Below, one piece after another: positions 6,492 through 30,800 of a stretch of DNA of 64,000 nucleotides. Origin of the DNA: Cordia subcordata (Eukaryota; Streptophyta; Magnoliopsida; Boraginales; Cordiaceae); NCBI GenBank assembly GCA_028554755.1, contig JAPTOF010000021.1, positions 261,501 to 325,500 on the forward strand, written 5' to 3'. Position numbers and translations under genes: made by a program. The notes beneath the pieces are model-generated. The model was given only the letters and a program-made list of their open reading frames with translations, made no database searches and had not been told where the DNA came from. Every line of letters begins with the position of its first letter. The first letter of the stretch is position 1.

Positions 6492-9176
6492 TCAACGTCC
6501 TTTTGGGTTCATGATCTGTGAGAAGACGGCACTTGGTGTTAACCAGTCTGAGTCTTCACTTGCAAGACTCCGACCACCAATGCTCATGGACATTCCACTG
6601 CTTTGTGAAGCTGTAACGCTGCTGTCAAAACCTGGAGATGCTTTGGTGTCCTTCCTCCCCTTATGCATGACATCAAATGAGCCATCTTCAACATCCACTC
6701 CTCCGACAACCTTGCCACTCTCCTCTGCGCTGTCCTGCAGTTGCAGAGCGAACTCAAGGTTCCACAGCACATCACCCATTGAGGGCCTTTCGGTCCCAAC
6801 ATCAGCCACACACTTTACTGCTGTCTCAGCAAATTTCTTGAAGCACTCTGGTGCAATCTTCCCCTCCAGGTAAGGATCAACAATCTGCTCAAGGGTTCCC
6901 TTCTTACAACAATGTAAAGCCCACTCTGCCAAGCTCACTTGCTCCTTCGCAAGTGTAGGATTCAAAGCAGGTCGAGCACACAGGATCTCGAAGAGTACTA
7001 CCCCAAATGAGTAGACATCAGATTTTTCAGTCAGTTTCTGCCTTCTGAAGTATTCAGGATCCAAGTAACCAAAACTACCCTTCACTACCGTACTGACATG
7101 GGTGTGATCCAGTGTTGGACCTGTTTTTGACAAGCCAAAATCAGAAACTTTTGCCACCCATTTCTCATCCAGAAGGATGTTAGTTGTCTTGACATCACGG
7201 TGGATAATAGTGTGCTTGGCACCAGTATGAAGGTAATGCAAACCACGAGCAGCGCCAATGCATATTTCAAGCCTCTGTTTCCAAGGGAGAGGGGGCTTTT
7301 GGGTCTTGTATAGATGCTCACGCAAAGTTCCATAGGCCATGTAATCGTATACGAGTATCATTTCAGTGTTTTCCTCACAATACCCAATCAAGGATACAAG
7401 GTGACGGTGGCGAAGTTTGGAAAGCATTTCAATCTCTGTTTGGAATTCATGCACACCTTGTTCGGAGAGTGGGTTCCCACGCTTAATTGCAACTTTTGTG
7501 CCACCGTCAATTTCTCCCCTGTAAACTTTCCCAAATCCTCCCACCCCAAGGAGGAGAGCCTCGTCAAAGTTATTGGTGGCAGCTTTGATCTCGGCAAATG
7601 AAAAGTGGCGACAAAGATTTGAAGGGAGTGAGGAAGCATAACTTCCTGTGGCATTTGACTTTGCAGAGCTTGAAGTATGAGAATTTCCATACAGAGAGAG
7701 GGGGAGCCACCCATCACTCGTTGTGGAGTCTTTCCTGTTCTTGCGGTTTCTGGAGACAAAGCATACTAATAACCCAATGAGAAAGACTGCAGCAATTCCA
7801 CCTCCAACGCCTCCACCAATAGCTGCCTTTTGATTCTTTGATTGCCCCGATCCAGATGATCCCGGATCTGATGACTCCATCGGTGGTTTTGGAGCTGGGA
7901 TAGGATTAGGACCTGCAAGACTCCCACGAGTATCATTGACTTTGAATATCTCCAGCCCGTTCAAGATTGCGTCATAGTAATTGGATCCTGAGGGAGCATT
8001 AGGATGTAGTGCAAGCCAAAAATCTTGCTGTGGTGGACCATTTGGTACCGGCACGATGAAATCCTTGTACACTGGAACCCCATTTTTCTCACCGCCCCAA
8101 GCAATTACATCTGCGGCTTCAAATGCAGTGCGATTATTGAGGTAGATATCGAACACTCTCTGGTTAATTTTGGTGATATTATCAATAACCTCGCAGAAAT
8201 GCAGCCTGACCAGGTAGGTAAACCCTGAGTCGACCGTGAAAAGCCAAGTCAGATTAGACTGCACGTTAACTTGAGAGTTGGGACCCATTGCTCTATAAGT
8301 TCTGTACACGTCAAGAGGGGCAACATAAGTTGGCATTGTTACAGGATAGGTGATATTCACGTCTCGATCAGCAACCATTGTAACCCCAAAGCCAGCCCCA
8401 AGTACATAGCCAGAATCATCTATCCACGACCTGTACATACCCGTATCACCTGAGGGTGAAATGTCATTACCACCCACATTCAGCCGATAAACGTTCTCAA
8501 GAGCAGTCATATTACCGACAACGAACGGCGTATTCGTGCCGACGATCATGGTAGTACCGTCAGTCGTATTATATATATCATCAGGATGGGAAACAATCTC
8601 GATCCCATTAACAAATGCAAACGAGTCTGGGGTATTTGAAGCGGGAGCAAAAGTTACGGTCAACGTGTCGGAGGGGACATAAACCGAGTACTCCTTGAAG
8701 ATGAAATCGTAATTAAGAGCTTCGGTGGTTTGCTGGGCACTGAAATTGGTCAAGAGTGTATGAGATCCAGCAGAGACGGAGAACACGGCATTAGATGCAT
8801 TAAGGACATTGTAAGTATCAGGGTAGAAATAGAGGCGGAGAAATTTGCGACCAGAAGCAACAGGGAATGAGTAGGTGAAGTTGGATTGGAAAATGCGAGC
8901 CGTCGTGTAAGGGACTTGAGGAACGGAGGGCTTCTGGACGGCAGCAGTGGAAGTGGATGATTTGCCAGTGAGATTAAATCGTTTGTCGTTGTCAGTAGTC
9001 CATTGCCGGCCATCGGGATTGGGAGAATCAGGACCCCCGCAATTGAGTAATAAATCGTCTTTTGGCGCATAATCGGCAGCACTTGCAACACATGTGGCAA
9101 CTACCACAGTAATACTCAAGATTTGAAGCTGTAAGAGCAGCTTATTGCTCTTGGTGGTGTTGATCATGTTCTTCAT
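6492..9176 (-). CDS. FER: FERONIA-type CrRLK1L receptor kinase
   Basis: One uninterrupted coding exon of 894 residues, almost the length of Arabidopsis FERONIA (895). In order: a signal peptide (about 1-33, hydrophobic core then ASA), the malectin-like ectodomain starting DYAPKDDLLLNCGG and holding ENVYRLNVGGNDISPS and TYLVRLHFCEV, a transmembrane helix near 450-475, a juxtamembrane segment (GWLPLSLYGNSH) and a kinase with GVGGFGKVY, VAIKRG, HRDVKTTN (catalytic Asp about 661) and DFG. The tail ends GGRSLASEDSD...SAVFSQIMNPKGR as in FERONIA. The family senses RALF peptides and cell-wall pectin at the plasma membrane and controls growth, fertilisation and immunity. ATG at 9176 is used here; an in-frame ATG at 9203, the first after the inferred leader-intron acceptor, would add nine residues. 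Confidence 0.95.
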   Translation of the reverse strand: MKNMINTTKSNKLLLQLQILSITVVVATCVASAADYAPKDDLLLNCGGPDSPNPDGRQWTTDNDKRFNLTGKSSTSTAAVQKPSVPQVPYTTARIFQSNFTYSFPVASGRKFLRLYFYPDTYNVLNASNAVFSVSAGSHTLLTNFSAQQTTEALNYDFIFKEYSVYVPSDTLTVTFAPASNTPDSFAFVNGIEIVSHPDDIYNTTDGTTMIVGTNTPFVVGNMTALENVYRLNVGGNDISPSGDTGMYRSWIDDSGYVLGAGFGVTMVADRDVNITYPVTMPTYVAPLDVYRTYRAMGPNSQVNVQSNLTWLFTVDSGFTYLVRLHFCEVIDNITKINQRVFDIYLNNRTAFEAADVIAWGGEKNGVPVYKDFIVPVPNGPPQQDFWLALHPNAPSGSNYYDAILNGLEIFKVNDTRGSLAGPNPIPAPKPPMESSDPGSSGSGQSKNQKAAIGGGVGGGIAAVFLIGLLVCFVSRNRKNRKDSTTSDGWLPLSLYGNSHTSSSAKSNATGSYASSLPSNLCRHFSFAEIKAATNNFDEALLLGVGGFGKVYRGEIDGGTKVAIKRGNPLSEQGVHEFQTEIEMLSKLRHRHLVSLIGYCEENTEMILVYDYMAYGTLREHLYKTQKPPLPWKQRLEICIGAARGLHYLHTGAKHTIIHRDVKTTNILLDEKWVAKVSDFGLSKTGPTLDHTHVSTVVKGSFGYLDPEYFRRQKLTEKSDVYSFGVVLFEILCARPALNPTLAKEQVSLAEWALHCCKKGTLEQIVDPYLEGKIAPECFKKFAETAVKCVADVGTERPSMGDVLWNLEFALQLQDSAEESGKVVGGVDVEDGSFDVMHKGRKDTKASPGFDSSVTASQSSGMSMSIGGRSLASEDSDWLTPSAVFSQIMNPKGR

Positions 9177-9207
9177 GGTAAGTACATAAATGCGTGAATC
9201 CATATCT

Positions 9208-9527
9208 CTGAAAGAAACAACATCACAAGTAGGAAAAATCAAAAAGACTCGAACAATACTCAACCAGAAATGCCCGCGAACCAAATACAAAACACCAAGT
9301 AAAATACACAAAAATAATAATAACAATACTTTAATTTGGTGCTACTGTGTCTAAAATTTTTCGAGGCAGGTAAAGGGGGAAAAAAGGGGTCAAATTTTGC
9401 TTCAAAGAGATGAAAAAATTCAAAAAAAAAAAAAAAGGAGAAGGAAAAATAAAAGGGGATGTGAGACATAACAGAGCAAAGGAGGCAGGGAACACACGTA
9501 CACATATACACATACATATACATATGC

Positions 9528-15831: not shown

Positions 15832-16579
15832 ATGTATACACTTAACGTGTAATATTTATAAGCAGCAAACTCAAACACTGCAAGACTATTTAGCATATGT
15901 CTTTCCCCACAAGATTATGAAGTCCAAGATGCATTGAGAGCAGCTCATACTGTATACAGATAAATGCTAATATTTTCATCAGAGATTCATCGGTCTTAAG
16001 TGTCCAAAAGAGACTACAGAAAAGTATCCGAGGAAGATTATCCTGTTTGTTTTACTGCTATATGTTCAAACTGTCTTAACAGATTTCTGAAACCAATCAA
16101 AAGAAGATATAAATTTTAACTTCAAAGTCTGATGCTGCATAATTCCTATGGAGATATATATGACTGGCACTTTATGAGTTTAACCTACATGCTGGGCAAA
16201 CCAAATGAAGCTCCAGATACCTAAAATCGTGGTTATGTTCATGAACAATATCAGCCTATTCTTCATATATGTAACGTCCCAAAACCTTATCTAATGTGGA
16301 AAATGTGTACGCAAGTGTCTAAAATGAATTTAAACTAACAGTCAATTATTTGCAGCACATTGGACTTTCATTCTGAATTTTATTACAACTAGAAGTTAAA
16401 AACAATACAACCATGTTCAGAAATACAAACCAACATAATTCTGAACACATTAAGTGTTGGCAGTTAGATATCACCCAGCTTAAAGTCACTACTCCCAATA
16501 ACTATGTAGATATATAATAGAGACCAAGAAACTCCGTTCTAACTCAAGGGACTATTCTGTAAAAAGGCAGCAGGAGGCC
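15832..16579. other. Convergent 3' UTR region, mannanase and S6K genes
   Basis: Non-coding apart from the shifted-frame S6K C-terminal stretch at 16539-16588, described with that gene. The rest should be the two 3' UTRs; no repeat or RNA gene recognised. Confidence 0.5.
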
Positions 16580-18878
16580 TCACGTAAGAAACCCTCCGAA
16601 GATGTTTCCTTCAATCTTGGGACTGGAAACTGGAGAGTCCAGCAATGGCATGTCTGTCCAGCGCTTATCGAAGTTGGCAATACAGTGTTTCCCAGCGACT
16701 TCAGGGCGAAAGCTTGGCTGAATTTCCCTGGCCTCCAATTTCTTCCAATTTATTGACCTGAACCACTTGTGGCCCTTTATTTCATCGCTTCCCTTTCTTC
16801 CACTACCTAGTCGATTGCTCAGTTCCTTTTGCAGCAGCTAAAATTTACAAGGAAAAAGTGTGGTTTCAGTACTTAATCATCACAGCAGTAAACAGAAGAC
16901 ACAAAAAAGTGAACATTGCAGAAGAATGCTCCTCTATCCTTGCTTAATGAGAAAGGTATTACCATAAGTTTGAAATTTTACATCAGTTATAATCTAACTC
17001 AGGGCCCCATATATGGACCACGAGTAGTGGTAAAACTCTTCAAAAAGGATTACTTATTATTTTCATACATGAACGATGATCATCCTATCTTATTCCTCCT
17101 AAGATATCATAGATTAAGGGAAGAAATGAAAGGAAACAGGTTAAAGATCTGCAGAGTTACCCCTTTCAGCAAAGAATGTGCTTCACTGGACAAAAATGCA
17201 GGCAGCTTTACTTTATACTTGATTATCTTTTGCTGAACTTTTTCTCGATTTCCACCAACAAAAGGAGGCTATACAAGCAGGAGATTATAAGTTTAGCAGG
17301 GTATACTTAGTTAAAGTGTCCAACATATCTAGCAATGAAAAAAAAAAAAAAAAAACTTTGAAGAAAACGAGATAGCAGAACCATATAGGCAAAAGAGTCA
17401 ACCCACTTTCCCTGAGGGTTTTAGGTTGAATGATTGAGGAGGGAGGAAGACAAAAGTCTGGCGCATTGCAGTCAAGTAGAGAAGAGATAAATAGTTCCAG
17501 CATGAAGACTGCTAACCTTTCCAGTGAGCAGCTCAAACAACAGAATTCCAATACTCCACCAATCTGCAGCCTTGTCATGGCCCTTCCCAAGAATAATTTC
17601 AGGAGACATATATTCCACTGTGCCGCACAAGGAATTTGTCCTTGTATCCTCAAATTGTTTTGCGAATCCAAAGTCAGTCAATATCACCTGCAAATATACA
17701 AGGAACAAGCTGGTATATCTTATGTGGCTAAATACATGCACAATGCAAATGCACAAAAACATAGAAGAGTAAGGAAGAGCGTATACATGGCCATCTGCAT
17801 CCAGTAGTACGTTTTCTGGTTTAAGGTCTCTGTGCATAATTCCATTTGCATGAAGGTGAGACACGGCTGAAACAATATCTGCTGTGTATATATGAGCAAG
17901 ATCCTCCCTGAAAGCCATGAAATGTAATGAGCAACATCTCTCCAAGAATTTACAAGAACATCCAAAGCAATAGATGGACTATATATACTGGAAAAGACCC
18001 TGGTGGTAGAGCTGAAAGAAAAGGTGTCCACCATTTATGAAGTCCAGCACTAGGTAGAGCTTGTATTTTGTCTGCAAAGTGCAGAAGGAATCTTACAACT
18101 AAAATTCAATTATCTAGAAAAGATTCAATTAACCTAATTATAATTGACTTTGCTGTTGACATTTTTTCCATACTGTCTGGGACTATGCCTGCTGGTAGAT
18201 GGAGGAGGTTGAAGAAAAATTAGCCAAAAATTTGTCAAAGAAACTTACTTGGAATGAGTATCTGAGCCGAACAATAAAAGGATGATCTATCTTTGCCAGA
18301 ATATCTCTCTCCTCCTTCATGTATTTAGCATGATTCTTCTCCATAATCTTTTCCTTCCTCATGACCTTCATAGCATATATCTCTCCCGTGCCCCTCTTTT
18401 TCACTTGATACACTTTTGCAAATGCTCCCTGACCAACAACTTTCAAAAGCTCAAAATCTTCAAGGCCAATTTGCTGAGATACAGAACCATTGACAGAGAA
18501 TTCCTGATCTTCTTTACTTGTCCCTTCAACAGCAGACTCGGCCACCAGTTCCGTTGAATCTTCAGTCTCATGGATGCTGAGCCTGCTATGTTTCAGTGAT
18601 TGGCCAACACAAATGGAAGGGCCAACTGAAGAATGTGGACGATTGTAGATGACCTCTGAATCATCATAGACAAGCTGAGCTGTATCTGCTTTTAGAATCA
18701 AACCATCACATTTACCATTGATCACAACAACCGAGGCCGGACCAAATACATCATCAAAATCTAACTCAAGCTGGTTTGAGTTAACAACATCAGGAGGACT
18801 CACAGGTAAAACTAGCTGACACCGAAAGGAATTACAAATCTGAACTTGTGTCATTGTGGATAGCTGAGAGGAAACCAT
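16580..18878 (-). CDS. S6K: Ribosomal protein S6 kinase-like AGC kinase with frameshifted C-terminus
   Basis: Six exons on the minus strand: 18878-18249, 18071-17989, 17907-17787, 17687-17517, 17268-17161 and 16837-16580, all joining in frame to 456 residues. The N-terminus has LDFDDVFGP, like the segment of Arabidopsis S6K1/2 tied to RAPTOR binding. The kinase (from about 140) shows VVGQGAFAKVY, AMKVM, HRDLKPEN, DFGFAK, the activation-loop NSLCGTVEYMSPE with the PDK1-site Ser, and WWSIGILLFELLTGK. AtS6Ks are TOR targets that promote translation and growth. Two oddities: the third Gly of the glycine loop is Ala, and the hydrophobic motif reads NIFGGFLT then stop at 16580, because one base appears missing between 16589 and 16588. 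In the shifted frame the usual YVRPP continuation follows, to a stop at 16539-16541. Confidence 0.88.
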
Positions 18879-21640: not shown

Positions 21641-22351
21641 GTAATTTTATGAGCTCTTGTGATATTATGTAGATAGGAACTTTAATTCTGATCTAGCTTG
21701 AATGTGAAAGATGAATCTTACCATAAGAACCTGAATGAAAAGAAATGCTTGTACGACATACCTTCACACTTAAGCTGATCATCTCTGCCATTATTTTTGA
21801 AAAAAGGAAATAACTGATGTGTGTAGCGTCAAAATAAATGATGATATTAGTTTCTACCTGTGAACTAGACAAATCTGTGAATCCGCAGTGGTATAGTATT
21901 TGTATTTATAAATCATACCTTACAAGTCTGTATGATAATTTCGAGAAGAGATAAGAATCGGATATTTTTTTGTTTTTCCTTCTGGATAGGTGCAATTACC
22001 ATCAGCAATAATTATTTAGATTTCATAGAACATTCACAAATATTTGAATGTGAGGCTCCAATTGATTGGCTTTTTTTGACAATTTACATCAGTTAACCAA
22101 ACTATTCAGTCTGCAATACCTAGATATCTGATACTGAGGTTCAAATTGATTCGTGTATCTCTAACAATGTATATCAGTTAAGCAAAATTCTGCAAGTATC
22201 ATATAAGTAAACCTGTATATTTCTTTTTGTAGTTTGTCCAACTTTGAAACAAAGACTGGACTTCAATCTTGCACACACATCTTCATTTGCAGTAAGGCAT
22301 GCATACAACAAAAGTTTGTACTTAAAATAAAGGGTAAAAATGCATCAGTAC

Positions 22352-23073
22352 CTCTACAGCATCCACCACAGTTGTTGCTATGTCATATGTAATTTCTTGA
22401 AATGTTTCATCCAGGAAGAACACTATAGTTGTCAGCTTTTTACAAGTCAAGAGAGCTTTGATTTCTTCACGGCCAGGTATTGTATGCCTAGGTCCGGCCT
22501 TAACAGAATGCTTCAAAGCATTTAATGTGTTTAATGCAAGCTCTTGAACCTCAGAGTCAAAATTCTCTCCATATGCAACATTGTGGACATACTTAGATAA
22601 GTAGCCACCAATTTCCTTGCTAGGAGGCATGCAGGATGCACATAAATACATTAGCTCCCATGCTTTAAGCAAAGATTGCCTATAAATAATTGAAGCAAAT
22701 AGGTGAAAAGTATGCCAAATGTGGCTAATATGTATATATACAGGCACATATGTACATACATATATATGTATAAATAAACACAAATGGAGCAAAGAGAGAG
22801 ATTTTTCAACTTCAAAATGACCAAAGAGGCATACTTATCAGGATTGTTTCGTGTTTGCTTTGAAATTTGAGCAAATAGTTCGTCTCGAAGCTCAGAACGC
22901 TTCAAAGCATGCTTATACAATTTCCCAACAAGCTCAACATGTTCATCCAAGCTTATAGGAGTTATCCGTTTGGAGGAATCTACTCCTATGTACTTCAAAA
23001 TGGTCTGGAACAACTTGATTGCCCTACTTATGAGGTCACTATTTATTTTTAGTATTGAAGTTGGTATTGGTTC
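22352..23073 (-). pseudogene. Captured fragment of kinesin-like calmodulin-binding protein (KCBP), MyTH4 domain
   Basis: Two exons on the minus strand, 23073-22835 and 22679-22352, join in frame across a GT-AG intron (AA|G giving Lys). They encode EPIPTSILKINSDL, then VELVGKLYKHALKRSELRDE and LFAQISKQTRNNPDK, then KAWELMYLCASCMPPSKEI, KAGPRHTIPGREEI and KKLTTIVFFLDETFQEITYD. This is the MyTH4 region of plant KCBP (ZWICHEL), a minus-end kinesin active in trichome branching and microtubule organisation. The FERM, coiled-coil and motor parts and the N-terminus are absent on both sides, so this cannot make a kinesin. The reading frame is nevertheless intact, pointing to recent capture or some constraint. 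It lies inside the Helitron-like element. Confidence 0.8.
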
Positions 23074-24183
23074 CTGTCAGAAGTTGCATTCTTTATTTAA
23101 GGATCAAAAAGTCAGAAAAGTAAATAATGTTAAGAACTTTTTAGTAGTATTGATTTTATTAATGTCAGCTGGTTTATTAGCTATACTCCTCATGGGCCAT
23201 CTGGGTGCTTATGAAACTTCTTTGTTAGATTGAGTATCACATCATATAACTACTAACTTTAGATTCTCACATGCATTAAGCAATGTAACCTACACCAGTC
23301 CATCAACGTATAATGCTATATGTTTTGGAACTTGTTTAATGCTTTAAGTTTGATACTCAAGTAACATGGTTAAGAAGTAAAATATGTAATATGTATCTAT
23401 CCATGCCATATTTCACTTTCGGGCGCTTACATTTTGTTTGTTTTCCGCTTTGAATTTCCAAGGTCAAATTTAGATTCTAAAGAATGCGAAGCCAGTAAAC
23501 CTGATGCTATGTGGGTACCATGACATTCCCATCTACAGAATCAGTCTTTCCTTATTCGTCGATATAATCTATCGACAAGTTGTTGTTAGGTGCCTCTGTC
23601 ATAACTGATTCGGGTGGGAAGACGATCTGGAAGATGCAAAATTCTGGGTAGGCAGCTTTACTTTTTCATTCTGTTCTAAAAGGGAGAGATGCAATAATGA
23701 GAAGCACAGACTCAAAGGTGTTGATGGCCTACATTGTGCTTGGATAGGGAGGTCTATACATATTTAGCTTGTATGTTATACAGGATGTAATAAACTGCTG
23801 TGAGATTTATATTATTTATTAATGCCAAGTATTCATATTTTACAAAAATTGACTAGAAATTTGTGGTTGTTAGCACATTCTACTCTTCAAATATCCACTA
23901 CTAAATGTTAATATATCAAATAGTTATAGGTTTGTAAATATTTAGAAACTACTTCATATGAAATATCGGAAGTAGTTAAAATCATGAAACTATTCATTTT
24001 GCTAACATGTAAAAGATGTGTTATATGGAGGTATTTATAATTATGCAAATTATGGTGTATGATTATTTTTCATTTTCATTTTTATTACATATAAATTTTA
24101 ATCATCAAATTATAATTTATATAAATTTTCTATAATAATACTATTGGGCAATGGCTGTGCCTTGCACGGCCCTTCACAACTAG

Positions 24184-25270
24184 TAATTATAAACATGATC
24201 CCTATTTTTAGTGGGTCACCGAGGAGTAGTAGGAGGCTTGGCCTACCTGTATTATGTACATATCCACTTGTAATTGAGATGTTGCATGACTTTTAATAAT
24301 GATAATGTGTTAATTAATACTAATTATTTCTTTAATAAATAAAATACACTAATTAGTTCGAATAAATTTTTAAGCTGTGACACTTATATTGTAATGTTAT
24401 GGTGGATGAGGCATTATTGGAGCTTCCTTTAGAATATGCTCCAATTATTTATTAATTTTATGTTTGGTTTTTGAGTTGGTGGAAGCAAGTTTACGTTCTG
24501 TGACCCGCCAGCCACGCATTCCGTTCAAAAATATTCTTCTTTTTGTTTGTTTGTTTGGTTTTTTTGTCTTTCAAGTTTCATACTAGTCTACAATGCGGTC
24601 AAAATGATCGTGGCTTGCAACCCACTCGATAACTTGCGCAAAATTCCGCTTAATTTCTTACTCATGTTTATTTCTAAATGTGGAACCAATTACGTATATC
24701 TTTCCAAAACAAAAGATATTGATTTGTTAGATGTTTTTAAAAAATTAAGTTTCACCACAATTTTTATTATAATATATAAAACTACAACTAATTGAGTGGC
24801 TTTAAAAATCACTAATTTACAATTCTATCAATTTGGTTGGAATAATTTTTCTTTTTCTTTTCTTTTCTTTTTTTTTTTTTGTTTTTTGACGGTGGGGGGA
24901 GGGGGGGAGGGGTTGTCCAAAGAGATATCTAATTAAAAACCGAAAAACATTACAAATAAGGCCAAGTCCAAATCAAACCAAACTCGAGTTTGGACAAACA
25001 CAAAACAACCAACAAAATATGACACACAATGGGTCAAATGACAAGCCTGTTTATAGACATGAAACCTATTAAGAAAGCCCAACTAACACCAACAAACACC
25101 ATCACAGGAATAGAAAAACAATTCATTCCCACCAGTAACAAAAGACACCTTTGCATCACCATCATTTGAATACCACCAAGATTGCCAACACAATAAACTC
25201 ACCATAAGACTCAAAAAAAGCTTGCAAAAGAGGGTGGTTAAGCAGTCACATCAGAGCAACCAAAAACACA
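24184..25270. other. Intergenic AT-rich DNA
   Basis: Nothing coding is supportable. A T-rich tract and a G-rich patch (24891-24912) are the only landmarks. The T-tract could be the poly(A) tail of an old minus-strand retroelement, but no LINE domain was recognised to its right. Confidence 0.5.
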
Positions 25271-25583
25271 TAGTACAAATATGATTTTAATTGGACTCAA
25301 TGCCTGGACAAAGGTTGGGCCAAAAGATTTGAAACCTAAATGGTCCAAACATCCCAAAAGAAAGAACGAATCCTTTAAGTCTTGAGTTTGAACAGGTGTT
25401 ATAAAGACCATTATGACCCTCGTAATATAGTACAAATATGATTTTAATTGGACTCAATGCCTGGACAAAGGTTGGGCCAAAAGATTTGAAACCTAAATGG
25501 TCCAAACATCCCAAAAGAAAGGACGAATCCTCTAAGTCTTGAACTTGAACGGGTGTTGTAAAGACCATTATGACCCTCGTAAG
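25271..25583. repeat. 157-bp tandem duplication
   Basis: Two adjacent copies, 25271-25427 and 25428-25583, both begin tagtacaaatatgatttt and end ttatgaccctcgta, with only a handful of differences. The flanks do not resemble a gene; a recent duplication inside older repeat DNA is the simplest view. Confidence 0.85.
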
Positions 25584-26474: not shown

Positions 26475-26867
26475 GGATTTTTTTTAAGAATGACTCAAAA
26501 TTTAAAATTTATAATGAAAATAGCCTTGTTTTGAAATGGTTTTCAAAAATAGCCTTTTCGGCTTTTCAATAGTCGATTTCGGCTTTTGAATCAACAAAAA
26601 TGCTGCAACTAACGGTACCACAATTTTCGGCTTTTGAATAACCGAAATAGGCTATTCAAAAGCCGAAATTGGCACGTTTCCCGCAATGCGTTCAAGTTGG
26701 TCAAAATTTGGCCGAAAATTGTGGTACCGTTAATTGCATTATTTTCGTTGATTCAAAAGCCGAAATCGGCCATTCAAAAGCCAAAAAGACTATTTTTGAA
26801 AACTATTTCAACACAAAGCTATTTTCATTATAGATTTTAAATTTTGAGTCATTTTAAAAAAAAATCC
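26475..26867. mobile_element. Mutator-type foldback MITE with 9-bp target duplication
   Basis: A 393-bp element with terminal inverted repeats of about 160 bp. The left arm starts ggattttttttaagaatgac and the right arm, read in reverse complement, starts ggatttttttttaaaatgac; the arms remain alignable through the cggcttttgaat motifs to ggtaccacaattttcggc. Flanks are identical 9-bp copies of aggcactta (26466-26474 and 26868-26876). Nine-base duplications and long inverted repeats starting with G fit Mutator-like elements. It has no coding capacity. Transcribed, it would form a long hairpin and could give small RNAs. Confidence 0.82.
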
Positions 26868-27839: not shown

Positions 27840-30800
27840 TACACATATAATATATTTCATTTTAGAAAAAGATACTAAGAATTTTTATAATTGGCCCCTC
27901 CATTTTTTTTTTTGAAAAAGTATACATGTATAATATAATTTTTCTTTAAATGGTTATTTATACTTATTTTTCATTTTTTATACTTTGTATAGGTTGACTT
28001 ATTATTATTTACGATAAATCTAACTATCATAATGTAAATGTTGATTGAATTATTCAATCTAGGTGAACATCAATAATTTTATCTTTTTCTTACTAGTTAG
28101 TGTAGAAATTCATTAAGTCTTAATTCGTTATTATTATTTTTTTATAAAAGAATATTGAGAAGTATTATAATTAGGGTATGCTATTGTATTATTATGATTT
28201 GTGTTCGTTTTTAAAAATTATTAGCATATAGACATGCCTTATGATATTGAAAATATATATACACTTTGATAATTTTTAAATTGATTTTTTTATATTCGTT
28301 ATAATGTTAATAATTGGGCCCCATCAGTGGAGGCGTTAACAAATTTTGGGGTCAATTGACCGTTCTTTTTTTTTTTTAGTATACAAAATAGGTTTTTTTT
28401 TTAAGTTTATCCTATTTAAATATAATTTAATTGAACACTCTTAACTAAAAAAAATAAGAATTGTTAAAAAAACTCAATTATTTTGAAAGTGATAGATTAC
28501 TTTTAAAATTAACAATGCTGTAATTTTTAATGATGTTTACAATATTGGATCTCACTAGGTCTAGTTGTAACATATTAGTTAATAGTTATATATATATATA
28601 TATATATATGTAAGATTACTTTATTAATTCAATATTGATCTAATAAAAAAAAATCTAACTTTCGCTATTAACCTCCCAAATTTTTCGTTCAAAGTCCACC
28701 ACTGTCTCTTCACATACGCCAAGTAATCCTAAGCAATCCATACCCATGGGCAAGAGATATAATCTATTTGTTCAACCATCACTAAAAATTATGGAACTGA
28801 TCATGGATGATTTTTGCAACAGCCACTAAAATTTATGGCACGCATTTAGCACAATCAATTTGAGCAAGTTAGCAACAACAGTAGAGGGATGTTTGAGATT
28901 TTAGCAACAGCAACAGCATGTAGCCAATAAATAAAATACTAGATGCTTTGTTCTAGCAAGATGGTAAAAAAAAAAAAAAACTTATTTCTCAAAAAATTGC
29001 TTCTCTGTTCTTCCAGTTCCAATTTACTAAACGCATCCCACTTTATTTCCTTTCTTCTGGTTACAACTTCGAAGTTTTTTCCTCTCCCTGAGATATAGAT
29101 TGCATTTTGCAAAACTGAAGAAAAATAAGCAGATCATTTTAAAAAGCTTAAAATTCTTGTTTCTTGAAAAAGCTGAAATTGAATTTTTCTTGAGTTTTAT
29201 TTATTTATTTTTAAATTTAATCCAAATATTTATTAAAAAAAGATGTTTCTTTTTCAAGAAAAAAATGTGTATATATGTCTATTCATTTGTCACTATTTGG
29301 TGGGTCACATCATGCCAATATAGCATATTTTAATAATTTAATTAACATAGCATATTTTAATTATGTTTTATCATTTTTTTTTTTTAAAAGGGTTAACCAA
29401 AGGAGAACCCCTTTCCCACCTGACCAGAGGCCCCTTAACCAGGCGGGAGGTAAATCGAGGGATGTGCGTGAGTGGCACTGCAGGAGAGGACCAACGGCGT
29501 GGAAATCCAAAGAATGACCCGCAATATTTCAATGAGATCGCGCCACACGGACTCGATCCCGCGTTGTCAGGGTGTCTCCACCCTAATCACCTGGCCACTT
29601 ACCAACTCACCTATGCCCCTGGGGGCATGTTTTATCATTATATATAATTCTTTGGGTCTTTATACATATATGTAAATTGAACTAAAAGAAACATTTGATT
29701 ACATCAAAAACATTTTAAAGCAAATTTATAATATTATTAATTTAAAGTACCATTTCTAATACTAATACTATTAGTATTTTTTTATCATATTTATCATTAC
29801 ATGTATTATAATTTTAATCATATTTTATAAATTAATTTAAGATACAATTTCTAATATTAAATACATAAAATTTAATAATATCAAATTCATTTTACTCCAT
29901 TCTATTTCAGCTTGCTAGTCCCTATCTTAAGGGGTGGATAACAACATCCATATCGTGAAGATATAAAATCTATGTATAAATATGTATATGTATTTAATAT
30001 TATTTTTACATGATGATATGCAAGATCATGAATTTAGGGTTTAAGTAACTATAACTGTTTCGATAGTTGATAACTGCTATATTTTAACTGTTAGCAAATA
30101 GCCATTTTAACTAGCTGGTTAAACAAAATTGGTTCGACAAAATTAGTTATTGAATTAGGTGATGAAAGTAAATGAAAAAAAAGACATTAATATTACGTTA
30201 TTATTTTTATGATACTTATAATTATTAATACTATTATTGGACTAAGATAATTTATTTTATAATTAGATATATATATATATATATATATTTTAGTAATATT
30301 TTATTATCAAAACATAACAAAATTAATTTTTTTGACAACACATTTGTATTAATATTATCAAAAGATATTTCTAATATATTTAAAAATTATTTTGTCAAAT
30401 AAAATAATAAATGGATGGATAAAATTTATACCTTTTTAATATATTTTGATATGAGTAGAATTTGAAATTAATTTTTGTATTATTTTTTATTTAAATTTGT
30501 GAAAGAAAAGGTAAAATGTAAAAGAATATTGAAGGGAGACTTCGATTTTCAGGAAAAAAAAATGGAGAAATGGCAGAATTGACACTATAAGCTTTTATGA
30601 AAAGTAAAACTCTTTGAAATGCTAAAAACTATTAAAAATTTATTTAAAAAACTTTATTTTACCAAATAACAATAATTTGAAAAGATAATATATATTGGCC
30701 TAATCAAAACAATAAAACTATTTAAAAAATTATTTTTTGATATTGCCGAACATTGCGTTAGTGCTAAACCCGTCTCTAGCTTCTCTTTTCTTTCTTTTTT

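What the first reader, a model, noticed from the sequence alone, without database searches (positions are those of the whole stretch)
16539..16600. S6K gene: one base missing exactly at the TOR-phosphorylated hydrophobic-motif codon
The last exon reads NIFGGFLT then TGA. Plant S6Ks have F-x-x-F-T-Y-V-R-P here, the Thr being the TOR site (Thr449 in Arabidopsis S6K1). If one base is missing between 16589 and 16588, the next frame gives YVRPP and a normal-looking tail to a stop at 16539-16541. The conserved shifted-frame tail shows the loss is recent or an assembly error. If real, it makes a kinase without its TOR site; the activation-loop Ser remains.
Basis: partly seen in the sequence, partly recalled or inferred. 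Interest (0 to 1): 0.75.

Follow-up and report, generated by a model that had tools for sequence, protein, structure and literature searches.

The report
Plant S6 kinase with broken end
One of three S6-kinase genes in this plant's assembly is one base short at the place that the growth regulator TOR switches on; the gap is really in the assembled sequence, but a recent mutation in a spare copy and a sequencing mistake remain about equally likely.

Summary
The minus-strand gene 18878-16580 is a plant p70 S6 kinase with six coding exons and GT..AG splice sites. As read it encodes 456 aa ending NIFGGFLT*. The usual continuation, YVRPPAAFLQNSPLS*, lies in another frame at 16586-16539.

Three S6K loci were found in the assembly (472 Mb, 62 contigs). 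The other two, on C56 and C1, keep FxxF/Y-T-Y. An ALA1-type flippase tree places the source beside Lithospermum (Boraginales).

The window copy departs from conserved S6K positions more than any of 113 relatives (15 of 210 columns; C56 3 of 210). The neighbouring ALA1 does not (2 of 627), so the faster evolution is specific to this copy. It lies in the kinase domain and N terminus, not the C-tail. The shifted tail is as conserved as intact tails, so the shift is very recent or an error. No frameshift showed in 46.7 kb of receptor-kinase matches, which limits but does not exclude an assembly error.

Verdict: an ordinary, partly redundant S6K with an unverified recent frameshift. If real, it leaves an FxxF-ending kinase without the phosphosite. 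Reads or RNA would settle it.

The parts
18249..18878 (-). S6K coding exon 1 (ATG at 18878; N-terminal region, G-loop, catalytic Lys, alpha-C Glu)
17989..18071 (-). S6K coding exon 2
17787..17907 (-). S6K coding exon 3 (HRDLKPEN)
17517..17687 (-). S6K coding exon 4 (DFG, activation loop NSLCGTVEY, SPE)
17161..17268 (-). S6K coding exon 5
16580..16837 (-). S6K coding exon 6 as read, AGC C-tail with turn motif (LLDSPVSSP) and FGGF, ending LT + TGA (16582-16580)
16584..16591 (-). Place of the one-base deficit: from the second Phe codon of FxxF (16591-16589) to the Tyr codon of the shifted frame (16586-16584)
16539..16586 (-). Shifted-frame tail YVRPPAAFLQNSPLS + TAG; not translated in frame as read

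Best explanation
The gene is an ordinary plant p70 S6 kinase, the S6K locus linked to an ALA1-type flippase gene, and one of three S6K loci found in a probable Boraginales genome. A very recent one-base loss has shifted the frame at the hydrophobic-motif phosphosite. The mRNA would encode a 456-aa kinase that keeps the kinase domain, activation-loop Ser, turn motif and FxxF, but ends two residues after FxxF, without the TOR-phosphorylated Ser/Thr, the following Tyr or the tail. Such a protein should be blind to TOR at that site, could still dock PDK1 through FxxF, and is probably tolerated because two other S6K loci keep the site and because this copy already evolves faster. Shown: the sequence, the frames, the other copies, the copy-specific divergence. 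Inferred: that the loss is real in the plant, that the gene is expressed, and how the protein behaves.
For: Gene otherwise intact: six exons, GT..AG, one frame, catalytic landmarks present. Relatives: 98 of the 120 listed match F..F[TS]YV[RK]P; in an alignment of 113 of them, T 73, S 39, N 1. Redundancy: C56 ends ENPFKGFTYVRPAASFLAN* and C1 ends GEHFQGYTYVAPNPWLSSK*. The DNA search with the last exon finds one 100% copy and two diverged ones, no second haplotype. Copy-specific faster evolution: the window deviates at 15 of 210 conserved columns against a maximum of 11 and median of 2 in 113 relatives; C56 3 of 210, Fisher p 0.006; window ALA1 2 of 627, plus 1 gap. Longest terminal branch of 29 tips in the S6K tree, 0.275, against 0.148 for ALA1. 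With 25 asterid relatives only: 21 of 241, relatives' maximum 15. Few frame breaks elsewhere: 19 long receptor-kinase rows in the own genome, 46,692 bases (rows, summed), each aligned in one frame; 17 of 19 without an internal stop. The seven ALA1 exon matches each run in one frame with three relatives. The mannanase exons that I joined align over 4-367 of 385 residues.
Against: The shifted tail shows no decay: mean identity to relatives 9.19 of 15 against 8.83 among relatives, and 59 of 113 relatives score lower. The AGC C-tail deviates at 0 of 21 conserved columns, so the motif region was constrained until now. This is the only lesion seen in the gene. All of this fits an assembly error equally well. 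No reads, RNA or second accession could be examined; the closest full-length proteins are 73% identical, one shorter one 75% over 90% of the query. Zero frameshifts in 46.7 kb still allows, at 95%, about 0.09 errors in a gene this long. Those rows are a favourably selected set, leave some gene ends uncovered, and 2 of 19 hold a stop that I did not examine.
Confidence: 0.5

Rival explanations
1. Assembly or consensus error: the plant's gene is intact and the missing base is a base-calling or polishing mistake at 16591-16584.
For: The tail in the shifted frame is as conserved as in intact relatives, the C-tail before it deviates at 0 of 21 conserved columns, and there is no other frame break or early stop in the gene. 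Technology and coverage of the assembly are unknown.
Against: No frameshift in 19 long receptor-kinase rows, 46.7 kb, nor within the adjacent ALA1 exons, the joined mannanase exons or the exons seen of the other two S6K loci. No run of one base longer than three stands at the site. The genome is in 62 contigs, which suggests long accurate reads (inference).
Confidence: 0.42
2. Functional divergence: the copy has lost its TOR switch as part of a change of role, ending in a near-terminal FxxF like the plant AGCVIII kinases and PKA.
For: Kinase domain changed at 12 of 168 conserved columns while catalytic residues and FxxF stay. Most plant AGC kinases that PDK1 may activate end in FxxF without a following Ser/Thr (PMC3499706 passages). 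One Gossypium relative cluster has N at the site (P0113).
Against: The shifted tail has not decayed, so any loss is too recent for the older kinase-domain changes to be adaptations to it. No expression or activity data.
Confidence: 0.05
3. Frame restored in the cell by splicing or ribosomal frameshifting, so the kinase is ordinary.
For: 27 GT-AG pairs of at least 50 bases within the last exon would join the two frames; 6 of the 27 reach YVRPP.
Against: None of the 27 translations keeps FGGF, and the 6 lose most of the C-tail. No X XXY YYZ heptamer in frame within the stretch scanned, from 60 bases before the site to 15 after its start.
Confidence: 0.03

Closest known systems
Arabidopsis S6K1/S6K2 (AGCVI, p70 S6 kinases)
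   Same: Kinase domain, activation-loop Ser in NS.CGT, turn-motif SP, FxxF some 15 aa before the usual end. The review gives FTNFTpYVRP phosphorylated by TOR at T449/T455 (PMC7988200 section 4).
   Different: As read, the window protein stops two residues after FxxF and has no Ser/Thr-Tyr there.
Wheat TaS6K1
   Same: Same family; the hydrophobic-motif site is a Ser (S467), TOR-dependent (PMC7719826 passages, one of them in the abstract). Shows that Ser is a working alternative to Thr.
   Different: Motif intact.
Plant AGCVIII kinases and PKA with terminal FxxF
   Same: Near-terminal FxxF without a phosphorylatable residue next to it (PMC3499706 passages).
   Different: Different AGC subfamily by sequence; here FxxF is followed by Leu-Thr, reached through a frame shift and not a conserved end.
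S6K-type models with an altered motif: Gossypium P0113 (DFNYIRP), Glycine P0280/P0281 (DHFQGLGFHLATQIF), Cannabis P0269 (ends FKEF)
   Same: Phosphosite replaced or missing in annotated relatives.
   Different: Annotated gene models, not checked at DNA level here; independent of this locus.

Membership tests
Plant p70 S6 kinase (AGCVI) | Closest relatives are plant S6Ks over the full length | tested here: met
   the best 120 of 6013 include many AtPK2/AtPK19 names (the S6Ks), mostly 65-75% identity; RPS6KB1 is best in the PDB
Plant p70 S6 kinase (AGCVI) | Intact kinase core (G-loop, Lys, Glu, HRD, DFG, [AS]PE) | tested here: met
   Third G-loop Gly is Ala, as in 47 of 113 relatives
Plant p70 S6 kinase (AGCVI) | Activation-loop Ser for PDK1 | tested here: met
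   NSLCGT; Ser in 113 of 113 relatives
Plant p70 S6 kinase (AGCVI) | Turn motif Ser-Pro in the C-tail | tested here: met
   LLDSPVSSP from residue 436
Plant p70 S6 kinase (AGCVI) | Hydrophobic motif FxxF/Y-[S/T]-Y, TOR site | tested here: not met
   FGGFLT* as read; the remainder is in another frame
Plant p70 S6 kinase (AGCVI) | N-terminal TOS region binding RAPTOR | not tested
   The conserved N-terminal stretch around DFDDVFGP is present, but the motif was not mapped and binding cannot be tested here
ALA1-linked S6K locus | S6K gene close to an ALA1-type flippase gene | tested here: met
   Window: S6K 16.5-18.9 kb, ALA1 33-41 kb. Close locus tags in Nyssa 015105/015109, Anisodus 003721/003722, Lonicera 016500/016499 (names; distances not checked)
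AGC kinases ending in FxxF (AGCVIII, PKA type) | FxxF at the extreme C-terminus as a conserved end | tested here: not met
   Two more residues follow, and all 113 relatives in the alignment continue past FxxF; sequence is AGCVI

The most novel reading that the evidence does not exclude
The frameshift is real and fixed: one of three S6Ks in this lineage has been uncoupled from TOR in one step. It would be a 456-aa kinase with a PKA/AGCVIII-like near-terminal FxxF that PDK1 can still load, working beside two TOR-responsive S6Ks, and a natural test of whether plant S6K activity needs hydrophobic-motif phosphorylation.
Probability: 0.12. Interest if true: 0.55.

Novelty: new variant of a known kind. 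Interest (0 to 1): 0.3.

Why it matters
If the loss is real, it is a natural TOR-site-less S6K beside two intact paralogues and bears on an open point: whether hydrophobic-motif phosphorylation is needed for plant S6K activity. One review describes it as the docking step for PDK1, yet cites yeast work that found it dispensable (PMC7988200). If it is an error, the locus is an ordinary S6K and the value is only a correction to one assembly.

Tried and rejected
Splice rescue: 27 GT-AG pairs in the last exon join the frames, none keeps FGGF. Programmed frameshifting: no slippery heptamer in the scanned stretch. Processed retrocopy: rejected, introns present. Generally fast lineage: rejected by ALA1 (2 of 627) and the C56 copy (3 of 210). 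Window copy as the plant's only S6K: rejected. A surviving homoeologous block on C15: the receptor-kinase gene has an 85-87% copy there, but S6K, ALA1 and mannanase do not appear in C15:6340000-6429999. A same-species or Lithospermum copy of this S6K type, with or without the motif: none recognised by name among the two lists of 120 (6013 hits in all, 4170 hits in all; the rest not shown). The one Lithospermum entry there, P0275, is 88% identical to the C1 copy and 64% to the window copy. dN/dS could not be done: no coding DNA of relatives was on hand. No structure was predicted: the spliced protein is not contiguous in the window and the result would not decide the question.

Full report
What is there. 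The minus-strand gene at 18878-16580 is a plant p70 S6 kinase. Its six coding exons (18878-18249, 18071-17989, 17907-17787, 17687-17517, 17268-17161, 16837-16580) all have GT..AG borders and join in one frame. The best 120 of 6013 relatives are mostly full-length proteins of 65-75% identity, many named AtPK2/AtPK19, and RPS6KB1 is the best solved relative. G-loop, catalytic Lys, alpha-C Glu, HRD, DFG, SPE, activation-loop NSLCGT, turn motif LLDSPVSSP and FGGF are present. The only defect seen is at the end: after FGGF the frame reads LT and TGA (16582-16580), while YVRPPAAFLQNSPLS plus a stop stands in another frame at 16586-16539.

Is it more than chance? Yes. The shifted tail scores 52 against the family tail and 0 of 20,000 shuffles reach that. 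It agrees with 113 relatives at 9.2 of 15 columns on average. The pattern F..F[TS]YV[RK]P is found in 98 of the 120 listed relatives. In the alignment of 113 (7 of the 120 dropped for length), the site is T in 73, S in 39 and N in 1. Thr is therefore the commoner but not the only possible lost residue; wheat uses Ser there (PMC7719826 passages).

Where it is. The window lies in a 472,264,809-bp assembly of 62 contigs, at C14:261501-325500. In a tree with 117 of 120 listed ALA1-type flippases, the window's ALA1 groups with the two Lithospermum sequences (FastTree support 0.994), and the C1 S6K is 88% identical to a Lithospermum S6K fragment over 330 residues. The source is therefore probably a member of Boraginales (order looked up). 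Close locus tags of S6K and ALA1 in Nyssa, Anisodus and Lonicera suggest that this is the old, linked S6K locus, not a dispersed copy.

Other copies. A protein search of the own genome returns 120 matches, mostly other kinases; 93 of 1085 first-look candidates were scored. By identity, three loci are S6Ks: the window, C56:2503899-2506613 and C1:12507999-12512850. C56 ends ENPFKGFTYVRPAASFLAN* and C1 ends GEHFQGYTYVAPNPWLSSK*, so both keep the site. A DNA search with the last exon finds the window at 100%, C56 at 78% and C1 at 67%, and nothing else. So there is no second haplotype copy to compare with. The Pfam C-tail family PF00433 alone rang only at C1, and it is not in the Pfam result for the window protein.

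Copy-specific divergence. Of 210 columns conserved in at least 95% of 113 relatives, the window protein departs at 15. The relatives, tested by leave-one-out with gaps counted, have a median of 2 and a maximum of 11. The C56 copy departs at 3 (Fisher p 0.006 against the window, columns taken as independent). C1, of a more distant group and typed without its first part, departs at 28 with 11 gaps. ALA1 beside it departs at 2 of 627 with 1 gap (relatives' median 5). For trees I chose 28 relatives by hand, matched by genus or, in three cases, by a related genus. S6K of the window has the longest terminal branch (0.275) while its ALA1's is 0.148. By mean distance to the relatives the window ranks third for S6K, and its S6K/ALA1 ratio (1.33) is second to Pterospermum's 1.36. 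In the larger FastTree one relative, P0091, has a slightly longer branch (0.240 against 0.238). With 25 asterid relatives alone the window departs at 21 of 241 (relatives' maximum 15); at columns invariant in the others it departs at 9 of 179 and P0091 at 10 of 190. The departures are 3 of 19 in the N-terminal part, 12 of 168 in the kinase domain, 0 of 21 in the C-tail and 0 of 2 in the shifted tail. This is faster evolution of a gene that still looks selected, not the wreck of a pseudogene.

Real or error? The shifted tail is not decayed: window 9.19 of 15 against 8.83 among relatives, with 59 of 113 relatives lower. The 40 columns before it are at least as conserved as in relatives (28.4 against 27.0). 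The frameshift must be very recent or absent from the plant. For the assembly's reliability, a search with the window's 944-aa malectin-like receptor kinase (domains) gives 49 rows, 19 of them long. These 19, the window's own included, sum to 46,692 bases and are each aligned in one frame; 17 have no internal stop and 2 have one, which I did not examine. With zero frameshifts the 95% upper bound is about 6 per 100 kb, or 0.09 for this gene; the set is favourably selected. Three ALA1 relatives each match the window in seven exon pieces with one frame per piece, and the joined mannanase exons align over 4-367 of 385 residues. I hold a recent real loss at 0.50 and an error at 0.42.

How it would work if real (inference). 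TOR phosphorylates the Ser/Thr after FxxF, which docks PDK1, which then phosphorylates the activation loop (PMC7988200 section 4). T449A in Arabidopsis S6K1 abolishes the phosphorylation seen with the phospho-specific antibody (PMC4321543 passages). Most plant AGC kinases that PDK1 may activate end in FxxF without a Ser/Thr (PMC3499706 passages). The window protein would resemble those: FxxF kept, phosphosite gone. [quoted passage not shown] I saw the title in reference lists and the review's remarks, which also note limits of that system, not the paper (not held). So loss of the TOR site need not kill the kinase, and C56 and C1 keep the motif in any case.

Novelty. S6Ks and their hydrophobic motif are well known. 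Relatives with an altered motif exist among annotated models: Gossypium P0113 (N at the site), Glycine P0280/P0281, Cannabis P0269 (DNA not checked). In the listings I noticed no title on a natural plant S6K that has lost the motif; only listings and the passages and section named above were seen. I rate it a variant of a known kind with modest interest until reads are checked.

Noticed in passing
22323-23076 (-): Two adjacent exon-like pieces with MyTH4 domain matches, resembling part of a plant kinesin-like calmodulin-binding protein (name recalled). In the open frames listed between it and the S6K start I recognised no continuation, so it looks like a truncated gene piece.
   Followed up: partly
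25270-25583 and 26475-26867: A 157-nt direct tandem pair (96% alike) and an inverted pair of 157-nt arms (90% complementary, 79 nt apart).
   Followed up: no
6492-9326 (-): Malectin-like receptor kinase of 944 aa in one exon, with an 85% identical copy at C15:6416527-6419310 that has one in-frame TAG in the match; no other window gene tested was found beside that copy.
   Followed up: partly
relatives P0113, P0280, P0281, P0269, P0256: Annotated S6K relatives with an altered or missing hydrophobic-motif phosphosite (Gossypium N; Glycine changed end; Cannabis model ends at FxxF; Genlisea partial model ends FKGFNYV).
   Followed up: partly
29366-29632: A segment of about 260 bp that matches two places in the C15 stretch fetched (83% and 90%), so probably a dispersed repeat.
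   Followed up: no
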